Positions 18,067-63,490 of a stretch of 64,000 nt of DNA are shown here, in pieces; within the stretch, counting starts at the first letter, position 1; every line of letters begins with the position of its first letter. The notes below the pieces were generated by a model. That model worked only from the letters and a program-made list of their open reading frames with translations, ran no database searches and was not told the DNA's origin. Origin of the DNA: Branchiostoma floridae (Eukaryota; Chordata; Leptocardii; Amphioxiformes; Branchiostomatidae); the NCBI RefSeq assembly GCF_000003815.2, contig NC_049979.1:29182791-29246790 (forward strand), in the 5' to 3' direction. The translations under genes and the position numbers were made by a program.

Positions 18067-32502
<14,436 letters not shown>

Positions 32503-45359: not shown

Positions 45360-47395
45360 CAGCAAGTTCTTTGTAATCTATATGCCAAAACGTTTGAAAG
45401 TTGAGAACTTTTAGCGTTAAAGGGGCATTCCATTCCAGAACGGTGCACACCCCAGTTCTTCCGCGACCGGGGTCCGTGGTAGTCCGCGACCAAAAAGTGA
45501 CGAAAGGCTTTCGAGGGCCCAAGTTTGAGTTGACATTTCTCATTATTTCCTGCGAAATGACATTAAACGGTTACATGGCTGAAAAGCGTAGGAAATGGTG
45601 TGTTTTTGGTGCAAATTGTGTTTTGGTCCGCGCGTTGCTTCCGCGATATCCCTACGCCTGAATGTAAAGAGGCCCGTGACCTAGATTTACCTCTGAAGCG
45701 CTGTGTCAAGCAAAGTTGCAATGCCGCGCGCCGTGGATGATTAAAAAAACTGTAGTACTAGAATTTTCTTTATAATTGGCTGGATTAGTCGTTAGATTTT
45801 CCTCTTTCTGGCAGTATCAGTCGTGCTTGCCGGAAAAATCTTCTTCATCTGTTTTATCCAATGCGAAAATGCCCGATTTTGTGCATCATTTTTGACATGA
45901 AAATAATGTTTTTTCCCTATAACTTTTGAAAATTAGAGAAGTTGAAGGATCGAAACTCAGTTGGTCTTGTAGCTGAAGGTATATCCTCTCACCCCATATA
46001 CAGTTATTTTTCTTCAGGATAATTCCCTGGAAGAGATGGTCGCTAGACTTGAGGGTGTGCCGCCTCCATTTGAACCCCCAAATAAACTGGTGTGTGCCCC
46101 CAGAAGGGAGTCTTGTTTTCCAATAGATAATGTGGCAATGAATACATAATCAGCCGAATTTTGTGGAATTCACCTTGGGATGAATTACGTGATGTGTACA
46201 ATAAGGACACTCACTAAACCCATGCAGACCCTACCCATGCATTCCCTATACGCACAGACACTGTGTTTATCGTACATATTTTCGGAATAAATGAGGTACG
46301 CTAAGCACACCGAGAAGGCAAATTGCTCATAAGATAGCAAAGAATACAAGAACAAGACGAGATTTCTTAGCGAACCTGAAATTAGTTTTGTAACCTTACC
46401 TAAAAGTTTTGCATTGTATTCAGCCATAGGATTAATTCAATTAGAGGGTACTTGGGGAGCTTAGTAGAAGACTGAATGCTTTTGAGGCATGTGAAGAAAC
46501 TGGGTACTTTATCGTATAATGTGAAGTAGTATGCAGTTATCACTTCCTAAAATTGATATCTATCGGAAAATAACACTCCCGTGTGGAGTGGAATGCCCCT
46601 TTAATGCTGACAAAGGAGCTTTCTGGGTCCCAGACTTTCGCAATAGTTTTCAAGCCTTGTAGAAAAGTAACGAAGTAATTTCTAGTACTCAGATGACTTT
46701 TTGCTTTCTGTCCACGGGTAGTGCTATGCAATTTAAGTGATTAAAGTAACGCACACTTTGTCATCTTGACTCCAAAACGTTTGAAAGTTGAGACTGTTCA
46801 GCGTCAACGGAGCTTTCCGGGTCCCCGACTTTCGCGGTTAATCCGAATAGTTTTCAAGCCTTTTAGAAAAGTAACAAAGTAATTTTTAGTGCTCAGATGA
46901 CCTTTTGCTTTCTGTCCACGGGTATTACTATGCAATTCAAGTGATTAAAGTAACGCACACTTTGTAATCTCGACGCCATAACGTTTGAAAGTTGAGAACG
47001 TTCCGCGTCAACGGAGCTTTCCGGGTCCCCGACTTTTGCGGTTAATCCGAATAGTTTTCAAGCCTTTTAGAAAAGTAACAAAGTAATTTTTAGTGTTCAG
47101 ATGACTTTCTGCTTTCTGTCCACGGGTAGTACTATGCAATTCAAGTGATTAAAGTAACGCACACTTTGTAATCTAGACGCCATAATGTTTTAAAAGTTGA
47201 GAACTTTCAGCGTTAATGCTGACAAAGAAACTTTCTCGGTCCCCGACTTTTGCAATAGTTTTCAATCCTTGTAGAAAAGCAACATTGTAATTTTTAGTAC
47301 TCAAATGACTTTTTGCTTTCTGTCCACGGGTAGTACTATGCAATTCAAGTAATTAGATTAAGCACACTTTGTAATCTTGACAAGGAATGGGATAT
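45360..47395. repeat. 204-bp tandem satellite, about four units, one interrupted by a transposon
   Basis: The landmark CGTTTGAAAGTTGAGA occurs at 45391, 46778 and 46982, with a diverged copy at 47186. The spacing is 204 bp once the 1184 bp inserted in the first unit are removed. Units also share GGGTCCCCGACTTT and TTTGCTTTCTGTCCACGGGT. It is non-coding. Confidence 0.92.
45417..46604. mobile_element. TTAA-flanked DNA transposon inside the satellite
   Basis: The element is 45421-46600 (1180 bp) with ends AGGGGCATTCCA and complement, and TTAA on both sides. The uninterrupted site (AGCGTTAATGCTGAC) is seen at about 47208 in another satellite unit, which proves the TTAA duplication. I see no transposase frame, so it is non-autonomous. 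Superfamily: piggyBac, Kolobok or Sola3. Confidence 0.93.
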
Positions 47396-54609: not shown

Positions 54610-57600
54610 ATGGTGCATCCAGTAGCAGTCCGGATTCGGAAATATCTGACAGTGGAGCCAGTAATATTCATGTATATGACTGCCTCCTCTCTCTCTGCCT
54701 CTGTAACTCAGCAGCTCATGGGGGAGGGTCTTTTTAGCGAATGCCCACAAACGCCCACTCTAGAGAAGTCCGCGCTGCACGAATCTCATTTTTTTTGCTT
54801 GGAATATGTCCACGTTGTGCTCCCATGTATTAATCCTGAGTTTCAAGTCAATCCATTGACCCTAAGTGACATAAATCAAAGTGTTCGATTCTCGATGGTC
54901 TTTTTAGCGAACGCCCAGCAAAATGTCTTTTTAGCGAATGCCCACTATATCCACAAAAATATCGGCCGTCGCGCAACGACACCTAAACCTACCGCCACAA
55001 ACATGTTCAAGATGGTGTCCCATTGATGTGTACGGAGTTTCCGTGCTTTACAAGCATTATAAGTCCCTGTTTTTGGTCAAAATGTACGGCGACGATACTA
55101 CCATACTTTAACTATAGCAATTCAAAATGGCGGGCACTAGTCATGTGACCTCCTTGCGGGACTGTTCTATAAGTATCGCGGGAGGGACTGTTGTAGCATA
55201 GCTTCTCATACAACCATTTTAGAGTGAATTCTGAACAAGATTTTCATTTCATAGTGCTATCATCTGACTGATATTTACAATGTGGTCATTTTTTCTGTGC
55301 TATTATTACCCAGGTTTGAGGAACTTAGTGCAAATATGGATATTGATTCACCTCAGTGCCCAATTAATGTACAAAAGGCTCAGACACATAAGAGGGTCTG
55401 CATGGGGGGTCCTGGCAACGCTTTACGCTAAATTCAGGACGAAGGACAACGTTTTACGTTAAATTCCGAAGGCCGGCAACGTTTTACGCTAAATTCAGAA
55501 AGGCCGGCATGGTTTACGCTAAATTCTGGAAGGCTAGTAACACTCGACAGGGGCGGGGGCATGCTCCTCTGGGAAGATTTTGAAATTTTTACTCTTTGAA
55601 ACACTATTTCCTGCATTTTGAGGGGATATTTTCGCTGGTAGACAAAGCTAAATTAAATGGCATATCTAATTAAAGGTTCAGTGTAAGCCACCCAACAGAT
55701 TTTGACCATGTCGAGCGCCGAAGGGGCGAGGCGTCGCAAGAGAAGTCCGGGAAATTGACCCCCTGGAACGCGATTTCCTACGTTTTTCTGGCTATTATAT
55801 AAAGCTAAGTTAAATGAAATTTCTATCAGCAAAAAAGGGTGTTTGAGGTTGACACGTCACATCTCCCAACATCATTTTCAGCACTTCGAGCGCCGAAGGC
55901 GCGAGGCGGCGCAAGGGAGGACCATGAAAATTTTGAAATCTTGACCCTCTAAAATGATATTTCCTGCATTTTGATGGGCAGATTTTGTTGACAGACTAAG
56001 CTAACTTCAATAACATTCTATTAGCAAAAAGGTTTTCGAGGGCGAGGCCACCAAAACAATTTTTACCATGTCAATGACCGAAGGTGAAAAGAGTCGCAAG
56101 GAAGGTCCGGCAAAATTTTGAAATCTTGATCCTTTGAAACGCAATTTCCTTTGTTTTGAGGGGCTAAAATTTACTGGTAGACTATGCTTCGACTTACGAA
56201 ATTTTGGAAGCCAGACTACGATTTACGGGTATTTTTTAGGCTAGATTACGTTTTACGTAAAATGTTTGGACTAGATTACGCTTTACGTGAAATGCACTGG
56301 CTACGCTTTACGGTAAATTTTCCATCCTCACTACGAATTACGTGAAATAAAATAGCTTCCCTACGAATTACGGAAAATTAAAAGGCCTGCCTACGCCTTA
56401 CGGAAAAGAGCATGCAGACCCTCACATAAGTGTTATAAACCTGAATAGGGGCAGGTAACCAATACTAGAAAAACATAGCTATTTATTATTAACAATACTA
56501 TTTACATTATAATAATAACTCTTCACCAAACTGGACTTTTCTTATCTTTATTTATCACAGAAACATTGTTACAATGAGGATTTGATTAGATGAGTATCTG
56601 TTACAGTGTGTACAAACTTATTTCAAATACAAAAATGTATTTCGTTTCACTTCCTAAATATTTTTAAAGTATTGAAAGAAGTTGACACATAAACAATATT
56701 AATTGCATTATTTATGTGCAGTAAAATGTGACCACATGCTATCAATAGCCTAATAAAATGTTGGAACATGGCACAAGCGGGCTCCTCTTCTGAGTACAGA
56801 AAGGAAATGTTTTATAACATTTAGTTATGACGTAGAAAATTTCAATTGTAAAATGTACCTTTGTTAACATTTACAAACAAATTGTTTTTTCTCTTCTTAA
56901 TAAATGACAACAATACAGGTAAGTAAGGTGTGTTTCCTTTTATAACAGGCCAGGCACATTTGTAAGACGCCGTACAGGTAAGTAAGGTGTGTTTCCTTTT
57001 ATAGCAGACCAGGTAAGACACCCTACAGGTGAGTAAGGTGCGTTTCCTTGACTACAGACTAGGTAAGACACCTTACAAGTGAGCAACGTGTATTTCCTTT
57101 CATTACAGACCAGGTAAGACACCGTACAGGTGAGTAACGTGTATTTCCTTTCATTACAGACCAGGTAAGACACCGTACAGGTGAGTAACGTGTATTTCCT
57201 TTCATTACAGACCAGGTAAGACACCGCACAGGTGAGTAACGTGTATTTCCTTTCATTACAGACCAGGTAAGACACCGTACAGGTGAGTAAGGTGTGTTTC
57301 CTTGACTACAGACTAGGTAAGACACCGTACAGGTGAGTAACGTGTATTTCCTTTCATTACAGACCAGGTAAGACACCGTACAGGTGAGTAAGGTGTGTTT
57401 CCTTGACTACAGACCAGGTAAGACACCGTACAGGTGAATAACGTGTATTTCCTTTGATTACAGACCAGGTAAGACACCGTACAGGTGAGTAAGGTGTGTT
57501 TCCTTGACTACAGACTAGGTAAGACACCGTACAGGTGAGTAACGTGTATTTCCTTTGATTACAGACCAGGTAAGACACCATACAGGTGAGTAACGTGTAT

Positions 57601-60600
57601 ATCCTTTGTTCACAGACCAGGTAAGACACCGTACAGGTGAGTAACGTGTATTTCCTTTGTTTACAGACCAGGTAAGACAACATACAGGTGAGTAACGTGT
57701 ATTTCCTTTGATAACAGGCCAGGTAAGACACCATACAGGTAAGTAAGGTACGTTTCCTTTTATAATAGACCAGGTAAGACACCGTACAGGTGAGTAACGT
57801 GTATTTCCTTTGATTACAGACCAGGTAAGACACCGCACAGATGAGTAAGGCGTCTTTCCTTTGCCTATAGACCAGATAGGGCATTATACAGGTAAGTAAG
57901 TTGCTTTACTCACCTGTTTAATACCTATCTGGTCTATAGGCAAAGGAAAGACGCTTTACTCACCTGTATAATGGCCTATATGGTAGTATATAGGCAAAGG
58001 AAAGTTGCTTTACTCACCTGTATAATACCCTGTCTGGTCTATATGCAAAGTAAAGACATCTTACTTACCTGTATAATGGCCTATCTGGTCTATAGGCAAA
58101 GGAAAGACACCTTACTCACCTGTTTAATGGCCTATCTGGTCTATAGGCAAAGGAAAGACACCTTATTCACCTGTATAATGGCCTATCTGGTATATAGGCA
58201 AGGGAAAGACACCTTACTTACCTGTATAATGCCCCATCTGGTATATAGGCGAAGGAAAGACACCTAACTTACCTGTATAATACCCTATCTGGTCTACAGA
58301 CAAAGGAAAGTTGCTTTACTCACCTGCATAATACCCTATCTGGTCTATAGACAAAGGAAAGACGCCTTACTCACCTGTATAATGGCCTATATGGTATATA
58401 GGCAAAGGAAAGACCCCTTACTCACCTGTGTAATACCCTATCTGGTCTATAGACAAAGGAAACACACCTTACTCACCTGTGCGGTGTCTTACCTGGCCTG
58501 TAATGAAAGGAAATACACGTTACTCACCTGTATGGTGTCTTACCTGGTCTGTAATCAAAGGAAATACACGTTTCTCACATGCACGGTGTCATACCTGGTC
58601 TGTTATAAAAAGAAACACACCTTACTTACCTGTACGGCGTCTTACCTGGCCTGTTATAAAAGGAAACACACCTTACTTACCTGTATTGTTGTCATTTATT
58701 AAGAAGAGAAAAAAAACAATTTATTTGTAAATGTTAATAAAGGTACATTTTACAATTGAAATTTTCTACGTCATAACTAAATGTTATAAAACATTTCCTT
58801 TCTGTACTCAGAAGAGGAGCCCGCTTGTGCCATGTTCCAACATTTTATTAGGCTATTGATAGCATGTGGTCACATTTTACTGCACATAAATAATGCAATT
58901 AATATTGTTTATGTGTCAACTTCTTCCAATACTTTAAAAACATTTAGGAAGTGAAACGAAATACATTTTTGTATTTGAAATAAGTTTGTACACACTGTAA
59001 CAGATACTCATCTAATCAAATCCTCATTGTAACAATGTTTCTGTGATAAATAAAGATAAGAAAAGTCCAGTTTGGTGAAGAGTTATTATTATAATGTAAA
59101 TAGTATTGTTAATAATAAATAGCTATGTTTTTCTAGTATTGGTTACCTGCCCCTATTCAGGTTTATAACACTTATGTGTCTGAGCCTTTTGTACATTAAT
59201 TGGGCACTGAGGTGAATCAATATCCATATTTGCACTAAGTTCCTCAAACCTGGGTAATAATAGCACAGAAAAAATGACCACATTGTAAATATCAGTCAGA
59301 TGATAGCACTATGAAATGAAAATCTTGTTCAGAATTCACTCTAAAATGGTTGTATGAGAAGCTATGCTACAACAGTCCCTCCCGCGATACTTATAGAACA
59401 GTCCCGCAAGGAGGTCACATGACTAGTGCCCGCCATTTTGAATTGCTATAGTTAAAGTATGGTAGTATCGTCGCCGTACATTTTGACCAAAAACAGGGAC
59501 TTAAAATGCTTGTAAAGCACGGAAACTCCGTACACATCAATGGGACACCATCTTGAACATGTTTGTGGCGGTAGGTTTAGGTGTCGTTGCGCGACGGCCG
59601 ATATTTTTGTGGATATAGTGGGCATTCGCTAAAAAGACATTTTGCTGGGCGTTCGCTAAAAAGACCATCGAGAATCGAAAACTTTGATTTATGTCACTTA
59701 GGGTCAATGGATTGACTTGAAACTCAGGATTAATACATGGGAGCACAACATGGACATATTTCAAGCAAAAAAAATGAGATTCGTGCAGCGCGGACTTCTC
59801 TAGAGTGGGCGTTTGTGGGCATTCGCTAAAAAGACCATGCGCAGCTGATGTATAACAAAGTTTGTGTGCGGGCCTTCAACGACACCGAACTTTGTGCCAA
59901 TATCAGCGCGTATCACACCAAGGAAAAATTCGTACAAACGGAAACTGCGCAGTGGATTGTGTACATGAACATTGCAAATGTCGTGCCGTCAGTTCTGGTG
60001 TTACTCTTACTCGGGTCGTGGACAGATAAAGCTGGTCGTAAGAGTGCGATGATGATGCCATTCGTAGGCGCGGTTATGTCTGGAGGCAATCTTATCATCC
60101 AGTCAATGTACATGTACAGCGCGGTACCGTACCTGTTCATTGGTGCTGTAGTGAGCAGTCTGTGCGGGGGGTTTGGCTGTGTCATTATGACGACGTACAG
60201 CTACGTCACAGACATTACGGTCGGTAGCTCGCGAACATGGCGGATTGGAATATTAGATGCCATGTCGTCCCTTGGCGCGGCGCTAGGGGGAGCTCTTAGT
60301 GGAGTCATTGTGGACTATGCGGGATACATGCCTGTCTTCGCAACAGCTGTTGCTCTGAACGCCTCGATGATACTTTATATATTGCTGTGGCTAAAAGAGT
60401 CAGTTCAAAGGAATGAGGGCCATGTTCAAGAATCAGGGCACCAGTCAGTAAAACCTAAGGCTAGTGGGCTACTCAACATTGAGAACGTGAAGTCGTGGGG
60501 GAGAGTCATCGTGAGGTCCAGAGAAGGGAACGGTCGACTGCACGTCATTCTCCTGCTGGTGGCGTTTACTGTGACGATTGGGTCTCTGTCAGGTGAGTCA

Positions 60601-61381
60601 CATTGACTGTTGGGTGAGTCACATTGACTGTCAGGTGAGTCACGTTGTCGGGCGAGTCACACTGACTGCCAGGGGAGTCACATTGTCGGGCGAGTCACAC
60701 TGACTGCCAGGGGAGTCACATTGTCGGGAGAGTCACACTGACTGCCAGGGGGAGTCACATTGACTGTCATGTGAGTCACATCGACTGTTAGGTGAGTCAC
60801 ATTGACTGTCAGTAGAGTCACATTGCCCCACCAGGTGAGTCACATTGACTGTTAGGTGAGTCACATTGACTGTCGGGTGAGTCACATTGACTGTCAGGTG
60901 AGTCACATTGACTGTCAGGTGAGTCACATTGACTGCCAGGTGAGTCACATTGAATTACAGTAAATGCAGTCAGCCACATCAGAATGTTAACTTAAAAACT
61001 TAAAAACGACTACTTGAACTTTCCTTCAGAATTGTATCTTAAGAAAGCAAAGAACAATTTTGTTCGAGGTCTTACAATTGGTAAGGTGTAATACTCAAAG
61101 AACACGAAATCTTTCGAATGTCAAAATAAGCCTGCTTAACTGCCAATGGACACTAAGAATGTCGTCCATCCATTTTGAGATTGCATAGCGAGGGTATGTA
61201 ACCACACTATTGGTAAAAGGTAGAAATAAACTGAGATTGATTTCTACACTCAATAATGTTGTCGGTCTTTGTTCTTCAAGGTGACGAAGACCTTGGCTTC
61301 TTGTTCATCAAGCATCAACTCGGATCTAGTTGGACCAGTACTTTGTTTGGACTATATATAGCTGTTAAAGGAATCACGTTT
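54610..61381 (+). CDS. SLC46-type transporter, 5' part; first exon split by a foldback transposon
   Basis: SLC46 proteins (proton-coupled folate transporter and relatives) are 12-TM major facilitator carriers. Coding parts: 54610-54720, interrupted to 59850, then 59851-60592 and 61281-61381; together 318 residues of an expected 450-500. The ATG at 54610 opens MVHPVAVRIRKYL, then TM1 (VEPVIFMYMTASSLSASVTQ). After the insertion come a Cys- and NxS/T-rich loop (NDTELCANIS), WIVYMNIANVVPSVLVLLLL, the MFS loop GSWTDKAGRKSA, GGFGCVIMTTYSYVTDIT, MSSLGAALGGALSGVIVDYAG and a charged central loop. Exon 2 joins in phase 1 (GDEDLGFLF...) and ends at a phase-0 donor. No later exon was found before 64000, so the 3' half lies beyond the window or in the N gap. 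As assembled the exon is disrupted unless the insertion is spliced out. Confidence 0.85.
54712..54720 (+). repeat. Left target-site duplication of the foldback insertion
   Basis: CAGCTCATG (codons Q-L-M) here and CAGCTGATG at 59842-59850 are the duplicated 9 bp, differing at one synonymous base. Confidence 0.8.
55385..56430. mobile_element. hAT-like non-autonomous element (1030 bp) inside the left foldback arm
   Basis: The element is 55393-56422, with ends AGGGTCTGCATG and exact complement CATGCAGACCCT, flanked by CACATAAG on both sides (8 bp). The mirror position in the right arm (about 59169-59182) has the uninterrupted GACACATAAGTGTT. Subterminal zones carry 5-6 copies each of a TTTACG(C/T)TAAATT-like motif, direct at one end and inverted at the other. 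The middle consists of about four ~170-bp units with CGAGCGCCGAAGG and TTTGAAATCTTGACCCT. Confidence 0.93.
56920..57893. repeat. 51-bp minisatellite, left foldback arm
   Basis: About 19 units of ACCAGGTAAGACACCGTACA-GGTGAGTAACGTGTATTTCC-TTTCATTACAG (51 bp). Because 51 is a multiple of 3, open frames of 100-175 codons encode 17-residue repeats (VSYLVCNERKYTLLTCT type); these are by-products. Each unit contains CAG|GTGAGT and a pyrimidine-rich TTACAG. Confidence 0.95.
57894..58690. repeat. 51-bp minisatellite, right foldback arm (inverted)
   Basis: The same family in the opposite orientation, about 15 units, with more variants that read CTATAGACCAG... on the complementary strand. The unit number differs from the left arm, which accounts for the arm-length difference once the hAT insertion is removed. 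Confidence 0.93.
60593..60955 (+). repeat. 21-bp minisatellite made of the splice donor, SLC46-type intron
   Basis: The unit GTGAGTCACATTGACTGTCAG begins exactly at the exon's splice donor (CTGTCAG|GTGAGTCAC) and is repeated about 17 times, with some 18-bp units lacking three bases. Many units therefore rebuild CAG|GTGAGT. Antisense open frames of seven-residue repeats are by-products. Confidence 0.93.
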
Positions 61382-63034: not shown

Positions 63035-63358
63035 AGTTATTATCATATAGCCTACGCAAACTTGCAAATTCCTGTATGACGCATAGATCCCTTGGTACTA
63101 TACGTGTGAATTCCTTTGTCGAATTTCTGAAAGTTCACATTTGGTACATACATATGTAAGGAGATTACAGATTGCATTTTGAATCCAAAATTTCCACAGA
63201 AAATATTCGAAACATTGCAGGCTTTTTAGAAAAACAAAACTCATTATCAATGTTAACAGAAGGAGCCATTTCCCCTTGCAGTCTGCTCCGGCATATGTTT
63301 TGCTCCTTTTTATTGGCCAATGCCTGCATATACCTTTCTTTCGTTCCTTTTGATTGGT

Positions 63359-63490
63359 CAAAATGAATTAACACCCGCACCGGTGTTAATTCAAAATGAA
63401 TTAACACCCGCACCGGGTGTTAATTCATTTTGAATTAACACCAATGGTGTTAATTCAAAATGAATTAACACCACTGGTGTTAATTTGCAC
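63359..63490. repeat. Array of palindromic TTAACACC/GGTGTTAA units
   Basis: ATTAACACC(N)GGTGTTAAT palindromes alternate with TTCAAAATGAA or TTCATTTTGAA linkers. There are four palindromes in about 130 bp. The spacers within the palindromes are CGCACC, CGCACCG, AAT and ACT. Confidence 0.9.

What the first reader, a model, noticed from the sequence alone, without database searches (positions are those of the whole stretch)
54712..59850. Foldback transposon sits inside a coding exon and may behave as a new intron
The SLC46-type exon reads ...TQQLM, stops, and resumes ...QLMYNKVC after 5.1 kb, with CAGCTCATG/CAGCTGATG as a 9-bp duplication. Removing the insert restores a gap-free family alignment across TM1. 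The element's inverted ends (GGTCTTTTTAG and complement) provide GT at 54728 and AG at 59832-59833. Splicing exactly there joins GAG-G to AC-CAT and keeps the frame, adding eight residues (GEDHAQLM). A palindromic end of this type always brings GT and AG in the right order whichever way the element inserts, as proposed for introner-type elements. Known: introner-type DNA transposons create introns. Inferred: that this one does.
Basis: partly seen in the sequence, partly recalled or inferred. Interest (0 to 1): 0.82.

Follow-up and report, generated by a model that had tools for sequence, protein, structure and literature searches.

The report
Foldback transposon interrupting a transporter gene
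A recently inserted hairpin-shaped transposon splits the first coding exon of a transporter gene in what looks like a lancelet genome; it probably disrupts the gene rather than being cleanly spliced out, though the full-length copies examined carry a strange array of splice-site-like repeats.

Summary
A 5.1-kb palindromic element (54722-59841, plus an extra G at 54721) splits the first coding exon of an SLC46-type gene between TQQLM and YNKVC; a genomic paralogue has the exon uninterrupted. Seventeen other full-length copies show asymmetric 5-nt tips and, in 16, 9-bp target duplications. It fits a non-autonomous, MULE-like foldback transposon; a nested hAT-like insert enlarges this copy.

The proposed intron through the inverted ends is not supported. 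GT 54728 and AG 59832-59833 score like average GT/AG of the window, below the gene's own sites that could be assigned. The family's standard geometry would add 23 nt (frameshift); only this copy's extra G makes 24. None of 50 other sampled insertions is a clear host coding exon, though 33 of these were tested on one side only, a weak test.

Best reading: a young, gene-disrupting insertion allele.

Unexpected: all 18 full-length copies examined carry a central 51-bp array whose unit combines a strong donor and a good acceptor on one strand, resembling amphioxus "mirage" minisatellites. Whether that array is spliced is open. No RNA or population data were available.

The parts
54610..54720 (+). 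5' part of the first coding exon of an SLC46-type gene (37 codons to TQQLM), ending with target duplication CAGCTCATG (54712-54720)
54721..54721 (+). extra G between the target duplication and the element tip; none of the 16 other copies with a recognisable duplication has it
54722..59841 (+). whole foldback element with tips GGGAG and ATGCG, 5120 bp including the nested insert
54727..55392 (+). outer left arm (begins GGTCTTTTTAGCG)
54728..54729 (+). GT proposed as donor; score -4.8, 51st percentile of GT in the window
55393..56422 (.). nested hAT-like insert, ends AGGGTCTGCATG/CATGCAGACCCT, 8-bp duplication CACATAAG at 55385-55392 and 56423-56430
56919..57892 (+). 51-bp array in sense, with repeated strong donors (CAG|GTGAGT, 8.5) and acceptors (TTTCCTTTCATTACAG type, up to 8.9)
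57906..58685 (-). the same kind of 51-bp array in inverted orientation
58707..59836 (-). right arm, complement of the left arm
59832..59833 (+). AG proposed as acceptor; score -5.7, 49th percentile of AG in the window
59842..59850 (+). right target duplication CAGCTGATG
59851..60592 (+). 3' part of the first coding exon (YNKVC...), donor at 60593
61281..61381 (+). second coding exon of the same gene

Best explanation
A non-autonomous, MULE-like foldback transposon inserted with a 9-bp target duplication into the first coding exon of an SLC46-type transporter gene, and an unrelated hAT-like element is nested in it (shown by sequence; the superfamily names are inferred). The allele is most likely a young disrupting insertion (inferred). 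Transcripts would read from the exon into the left arm and meet an in-frame stop after about 100 element codons. Any splicing would more likely use the strong donors of the internal 51-bp array, for example to the acceptor of exon 2, than the weak GT/AG of the inverted ends. The terminal GT...AG follows from a GTCT-bearing inverted repeat and is not, on present evidence, a working intron boundary.
For: Exon split exactly between residues that abut in the paralogue and align without a gap at the junction in the folate transporter 7bc6. Element ends and 9-bp duplications defined from 17 other full-length copies: 14 perfect, 2 with one mismatch, 1 without. TIR donor and acceptor scores at chance level. 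Best donor between 54610 and 55392 is only 0.4, and none reaches 5.5 between 54560 and 56900. In-frame read-through ends at 55026. The proposed pair is the weakest of 17 frame-keeping pairs listed, but the listing's cut-offs (donor -5, acceptor -6) were only just low enough to admit it, so that rank says little by itself. Three private changes in 1328 arm bases point to recent insertion.
Against: No RNA data. The host exons read so far are intact and conserved, which would also fit a gene that still works. The one extra G puts the proposed splice in frame. The nested insert, the 1-bp mismatch in the duplication and the extra G suggest the insertion has existed for some time.
Confidence: 0.75

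Rival explanations
1. One reading: the element is spliced out at GT 54728 / AG 59832-59833, adding GEDHAQLM near the end of TM1.
For: Frame kept, 24 nt added. Precedent: Aureococcus introners carry both splice sites and add 12 nt (PMC9860276, section 4 part 1 read). A maize Ds intron is listed as a reference in PMC3443670 (passages seen).
Against: Both sites at about the median of GT/AG in the window. No polypyrimidine tract before the AG (sequence). Both sites would lie at the base of a 666-nt near-perfect stem (inference). The standard family geometry gives 23 nt, a frameshift. No clear host exon among 50 other insertions, 33 of them tested on one side only.
Confidence: 0.06
2. The internal 51-bp array is used by the spliceosome, so the insertion is partly intronised or turned into microexons from array sites, possibly with some full-length transporter.
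For: 42 donors scoring at least 4 and repeated acceptors up to 8.9 between 56901 and 57920. 291 of 308 ungapped units in 18 elements carry a donor of at least 7 and an acceptor of at least 4. Amphioxus mirages were proposed as a source of new introns (PMC3087553, passages including part of the abstract).
Against: An intron removing the whole element needs a donor near the left edge, and none scores above 0.4 in 54610-55392. The array lies in a long hairpin. PMC3087553 says mirages do not seem to disturb regular splicing.
Confidence: 0.14
3. Assembly artefact or a haplotype mosaic: the palindrome or the extra G does not exist in this form in any chromosome.
For: Long palindromes and arrays are hard to assemble (general knowledge). 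The extra G is in a homopolymer run and the duplication has one mismatch.
Against: Element ends, array and duplications agree with other copies. The exon pieces are unique in the assembly.
Confidence: 0.05

Closest known systems
MULE-related foldback elements (Tetris of Drosophila virilis; Rehavkus and Phantom MULEs)
   Same: Long inverted repeats with internal tandem repeats, no conserved transposase frame, 8-10 bp duplications (Tetris, PMC4079207, abstract and section 17). Rehavkus: 9-bp duplication and a minisatellite before the 3' inverted repeat (PMC6446971, passages).
   Different: No transposase with these ends was found. The tandem unit here carries a splice donor and acceptor, which is not mentioned in the parts of those papers that I saw.
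Introners (PMC9860276)
   Same: DNA element with inverted ends and target duplication inside a coding exon, with GT and AG within its ends.
   Different: No evidence of splicing; no other sampled copy clearly in a coding exon; 3.4-5.1 kb against reported family medians of 30-654 nt; frameshifting standard geometry.
Amphioxus mirages (minisatellite duplications of exon-intron boundaries, PMC3087553)
   Same: Tandem units containing AG/GT splice signals; a donor-site minisatellite also starts intron 1 of this very gene (60586-60953).
   Different: The 51-bp array here is carried by a dispersed transposon and is not tied to one gene.
Ds-type transposon introns of maize
   Same: A DNA transposon in an exon can be removed from pre-mRNA (title in the reference list of PMC3443670; details recalled).
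   Different: Splicing was demonstrated there (recalled); here no RNA is available.

Membership tests
Introner | Element boundaries act as splice sites (RNA evidence) | not testable with these tools
   no RNA data; the sites score at chance
Introner | Family copies sit between pieces of coding exon | tested here: not met
   In the sample only: 0 of 17 other full-length insertions has a coding-size frame over the joined site (38-122 codons against 250 in the window). Of 33 one-sided flanks (13, one mostly N; 20) none is a clear host exon, but this one-sided test is weak: the window's own left flank would not pass it. 50 of at least 125 copies sampled.
Introner | Splicing leaves a usable frame | tested here: inconclusive
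   family geometry 23 nt (frameshift); this copy 24 nt because of one extra G
Foldback / MULE-like DNA transposon | Long inverted repeats making up much of the element | tested here: met
Foldback / MULE-like DNA transposon | 8-11 bp target duplication (range from PMC6446971 passage) | tested here: met
   9 bp: 14 of 17 perfect, 2 of 17 with one mismatch, 1 of 17 none; window copy 8 of 9 plus an extra G
Foldback / MULE-like DNA transposon | Mobilised by a MULE transposase sharing its ends | tested here: inconclusive
   27 MULE-domain matches in the genome. No shared end in loci of about 3.3 kb around 8 of them, nor in 9.9-kb loci around 4 of these. One FLYWCH-MULE (L074) has a 9-bp duplication and short asymmetric tips outside its inverted repeat.
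Mirage | Tandem duplication of an exon-intron boundary of a gene | tested here: inconclusive
   51-bp unit carries donor and acceptor; a source gene was not looked for

The most novel reading that the evidence does not exclude
The family is a mobile mirage: a palindromic transposon that presents, in either orientation though unequally, a sense array of 51-bp modules each with a near-consensus donor, polypyrimidine tract and acceptor. It recruits the spliceosome wherever it lands, so it softens insertions and can seed new exons and introns; the SLC46 allele with its frame-restoring extra G would be such an insertion still producing transporter.
Probability: 0.12. Interest if true: 0.85.

Novelty: new variant of a known kind. 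Interest (0 to 1): 0.5.

Why it matters
It gives a clean case of a young foldback transposon splitting a conserved exon, with an uninterrupted paralogue in the same genome. It also shows why GT...AG at palindromic ends is weak evidence for an introner. The splice-site-like array inside all 18 full-length copies examined is the more testable lead: if used, it would link amphioxus mirages, foldback transposons and intron gain.

Tried and rejected
Rejected: the element starting at GGTC with an adjoining 9-bp duplication (ATGGGGGAG/ATGCGCAGC), because the other copies place the tips 5 nt further out. Rejected for lack of support: a family-wide introner.

Tried without success: finding an autonomous partner with the same ends; plasmid collection search, no match; paper searches for foldback with amphioxus (none) and for transposon arrays with splice sites (none, five papers, listing only). 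Searches were otherwise used as listings, apart from the papers named in the report. The right-end pattern search did not complete, so left and right ends were not paired genome-wide.

Weak or limited results: conservation at splice-critical positions of the 51-bp unit was post hoc (1 of 19 against 10 of 32 variable, p = 0.037). The list of 17 frame-keeping splice pairs used cut-offs that only just admit the proposed pair. Splice scores use recalled human-like base frequencies, checked only on six donors and two acceptors, each taken as the best site at an exon edge placed by similarity; for the third exon the best acceptor was -1.5 in the paralogue and none was found in the gene, and these were not counted. 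The one-sided flank test would not have flagged the window's own left flank (102 codons, 95% level 144).

Dropped rows: 3 of 20 regions (L015, L017, L028) lacked a second end and were left out; L010 has no duplication and another left end but is counted among the 17; L014 has only 59 nt of right flank; L046 is mostly N; of 659 hits, 554 near full length, only 308 ungapped units were used. Pfam was run on 8 of the flank frames (L016, L018, L020, L026, L049, L050, L055, L056), not on all.
Full report
WHAT WAS CHECKED. The window lies in a 513,431,437-bp, 431-contig genome at C1:29182791-29246790. Size and mirage-type minisatellites fit a lancelet, probably Branchiostoma floridae; the species is my inference, no tool named it. 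From 54610 the sequence encodes MVHPVAVRIRKYLTVEPVIFMYMTASSLSASVTQQLM, and from 59851 YNKVCVRAFNDTELC... up to a donor at 60593. Joined, the protein matches a solved proton-coupled folate transporter (7bc6, E 3e-16) with no gap at the junction. The right part has an MFS_1 domain (E 1.2e-17); the short left part alone has no Pfam match. A paralogue on C2 (57% identity) has the same exon uninterrupted, QQQLVYQKVCV. Exon 2 (61281-61381), and a further exon at window-equivalent 65018-65134 read from the neighbouring DNA, match the paralogue at 54%. The exon was therefore split by insertion.

THE ELEMENT. Its arms are near-identical inverted repeats: 4 differences in 666 and 5 in 472. Of 20 genomic regions fetched, 17 hold another copy with both ends. 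They show tips GGGAG (left; 16 of 17) and ATGCG (right; 17 of 17) outside GGTCTTTTTAGCG, and a 9-bp duplication that is perfect in 14 of 17, one mismatch in 2 of 17, absent in 1 of 17. In the window copy the duplication is CAGCTCATG/CAGCTGATG with one extra G before the left tip. The genome holds 125 left ends with up to 2 mismatches, against 0 for the pattern read backwards. Three of 1328 arm bases (664 per arm) of the window copy are private to it among the 18 elements aligned, so it is probably young, though conversion between copies could hide changes. The nested 1030-bp element has an 8-bp duplication CACATAAG, which suggests hAT (superfamily by recalled features). It is repetitive, but of 40 scored among 881 candidates only the window place matches across the junction.

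FAMILY. Long arms with tandem repeats and a 9-bp duplication fit MULE-like foldbacks: Tetris (PMC4079207, abstract and section 17) and Rehavkus/Phantom (PMC6446971, passages only). The genome has 27 MULE-domain matches, all above cut-off. A FLYWCH-MULE at L074 has a 9-bp duplication GTGTGTAGC and short unlike tips outside its inverted repeat, the same end plan, but its ends differ from those of the window element. No partner with the same ends was found in loci of about 3.3 kb around 8 of the 27, nor in 9.9-kb loci around 4 of these.

CAN IT BE AN INTRON? The proposed donor scores -4.8 (51st percentile of 8056 GT on both strands of the window) and the acceptor -5.7 (49th percentile of 7536 AG), with recalled human-like frequencies. 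Six donors assigned to this gene and its paralogue score 8.5, 4.7, 2.8, 2.0, 2.0 and 1.5, and two acceptors 4.5 and 4.0; each is the best-scoring site at an exon edge placed by similarity. For the third exon the best acceptor was -1.5 in the paralogue and none was found in the gene, so that edge is not placed. The proposed pair is the weakest of 17 frame-keeping pairs listed, but the cut-offs of that list only just admit it. In RNA both sites would sit at the foot of a 666-nt near-perfect stem (inference). Splicing at these sites would add 6 + 8 + 9 = 23 nt in the standard geometry; only the extra G here makes 24. That can be chance, a sequencing error in a G run, or selection; I cannot tell. 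Introners were recognised in PMC9860276 as similar introns whose similarity reaches close to both splice boundaries, with family median lengths of 30-654 nt, and some add codons (section 4 part 1 read; section 10 read). A term search of that paper's main text found no Branchiostoma or amphioxus.

DO OTHER COPIES HIT EXONS? For the 17 other full-length copies the longest frame across the joined site is 38-122 codons, against 250 at the window site, with up to 600 nt of flank per side (59 nt on one side of L014). Among 13 one-sided flanks, two have frames of 125 and 127 codons: L049 without a Pfam match, L056 resembling a LINE reverse transcriptase by recall, also without a Pfam match; L050 has a weak Coa3 match below its cut-off; L046 is mostly N. 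Pfam was run on 8 of the frames next to these 30 copies. Among 20 more left flanks none reaches the 95% level (144 codons) of random window pieces. The window's own left flank (102 codons) would not have reached it either, so the one-sided test is weak; the two-sided one carries the argument. So 0 of 50 others is a clear host coding exon; at least 75 more copies were not sampled, and insertions in introns were not assessed.

THE UNEXPECTED PART. The centre of the element is a 51-bp array: 56962-57875 in sense, and inverted from 57906. Its unit carries CAG|GTGAGT (8.5), ACCAG|GTAAGA (7.0) and an acceptor TGTATTTCCTTTCATTACAG (8.0) on the same strand. All 18 full-length elements have a 51-bp array. 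In 17 of 17 others the strong donors on the + strand are more numerous in the first half than in the second; in the window copy the count is 11 to 20 because the nested insert shifts the midpoint. Read from the other end, the palindrome also offers donors, but unequally: 2 to 34 strong donors on the - strand against 11 to 44 on the + strand. Of 308 ungapped units, scored as circles, 291 carry both a donor of at least 7 and an acceptor of at least 4. Random circularised 51-mers from window 1-54600 reached a donor of at least 8.4 together with an acceptor of at least 6.4 in 9 of 39,897 cases, and shuffles of the unit in 0 of 20,000. This is post hoc, and one unit is one event. Amphioxus genes carry mirages, tandem copies of exon-intron boundaries, for which a role in new introns was proposed (PMC3087553, passages including part of the abstract); the first intron of this gene itself starts with a donor minisatellite at 60586-60953. 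A transposon that spreads such an array did not turn up in my few searches (listings, with only PMC3087553 opened).

VERDICT. Insertion in the exon: firm. Introner behaviour through the inverted ends: unlikely. Most likely a young disruptive allele; PMC3087553 describes B. floridae as highly heterozygous, so an empty allele elsewhere is expected, but no second copy of the exon is in the assembly. Splicing through the internal array is open and worth testing.

Noticed in passing
60586-60953: Intron 1 of the SLC46 gene begins with about 18 copies of a 21-bp unit that contains the gene's own donor (CTGTCAG|GTGAGTCACATTGA), a mirage-type minisatellite; nine donors there score 6.2-8.5.
   Followed up: partly
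55393-56422: Nested hAT-like insert with ends AGGGTCTGCATG/CATGCAGACCCT and duplication CACATAAG; a repetitive family genome-wide.
   Followed up: partly
L060-L067, L072-L075: Open MULE transposase frames in this genome, two of two tested (L072, L074) with a FLYWCH match, in L072 below its cut-off; PMC6446971 (passages) reports only limited evidence for MULEs in chordates and could not confirm them in B. floridae.
   Followed up: partly
24398-24754: 17-bp tandem array (21 copies, ACCTGGCACAGGCAACC), open in several frames.
   Followed up: no
46642-47381: 204-bp tandem repeat, 3.6 copies.
   Followed up: no
63358-63485: Short array of palindromic units (AATTAACACC...GGTGTTAATT).
   Followed up: no
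L045, L046: Two left ends of the same element family about 2.6 kb apart on C221 with similar flanking bases, perhaps a local duplication after insertion.
   Followed up: no
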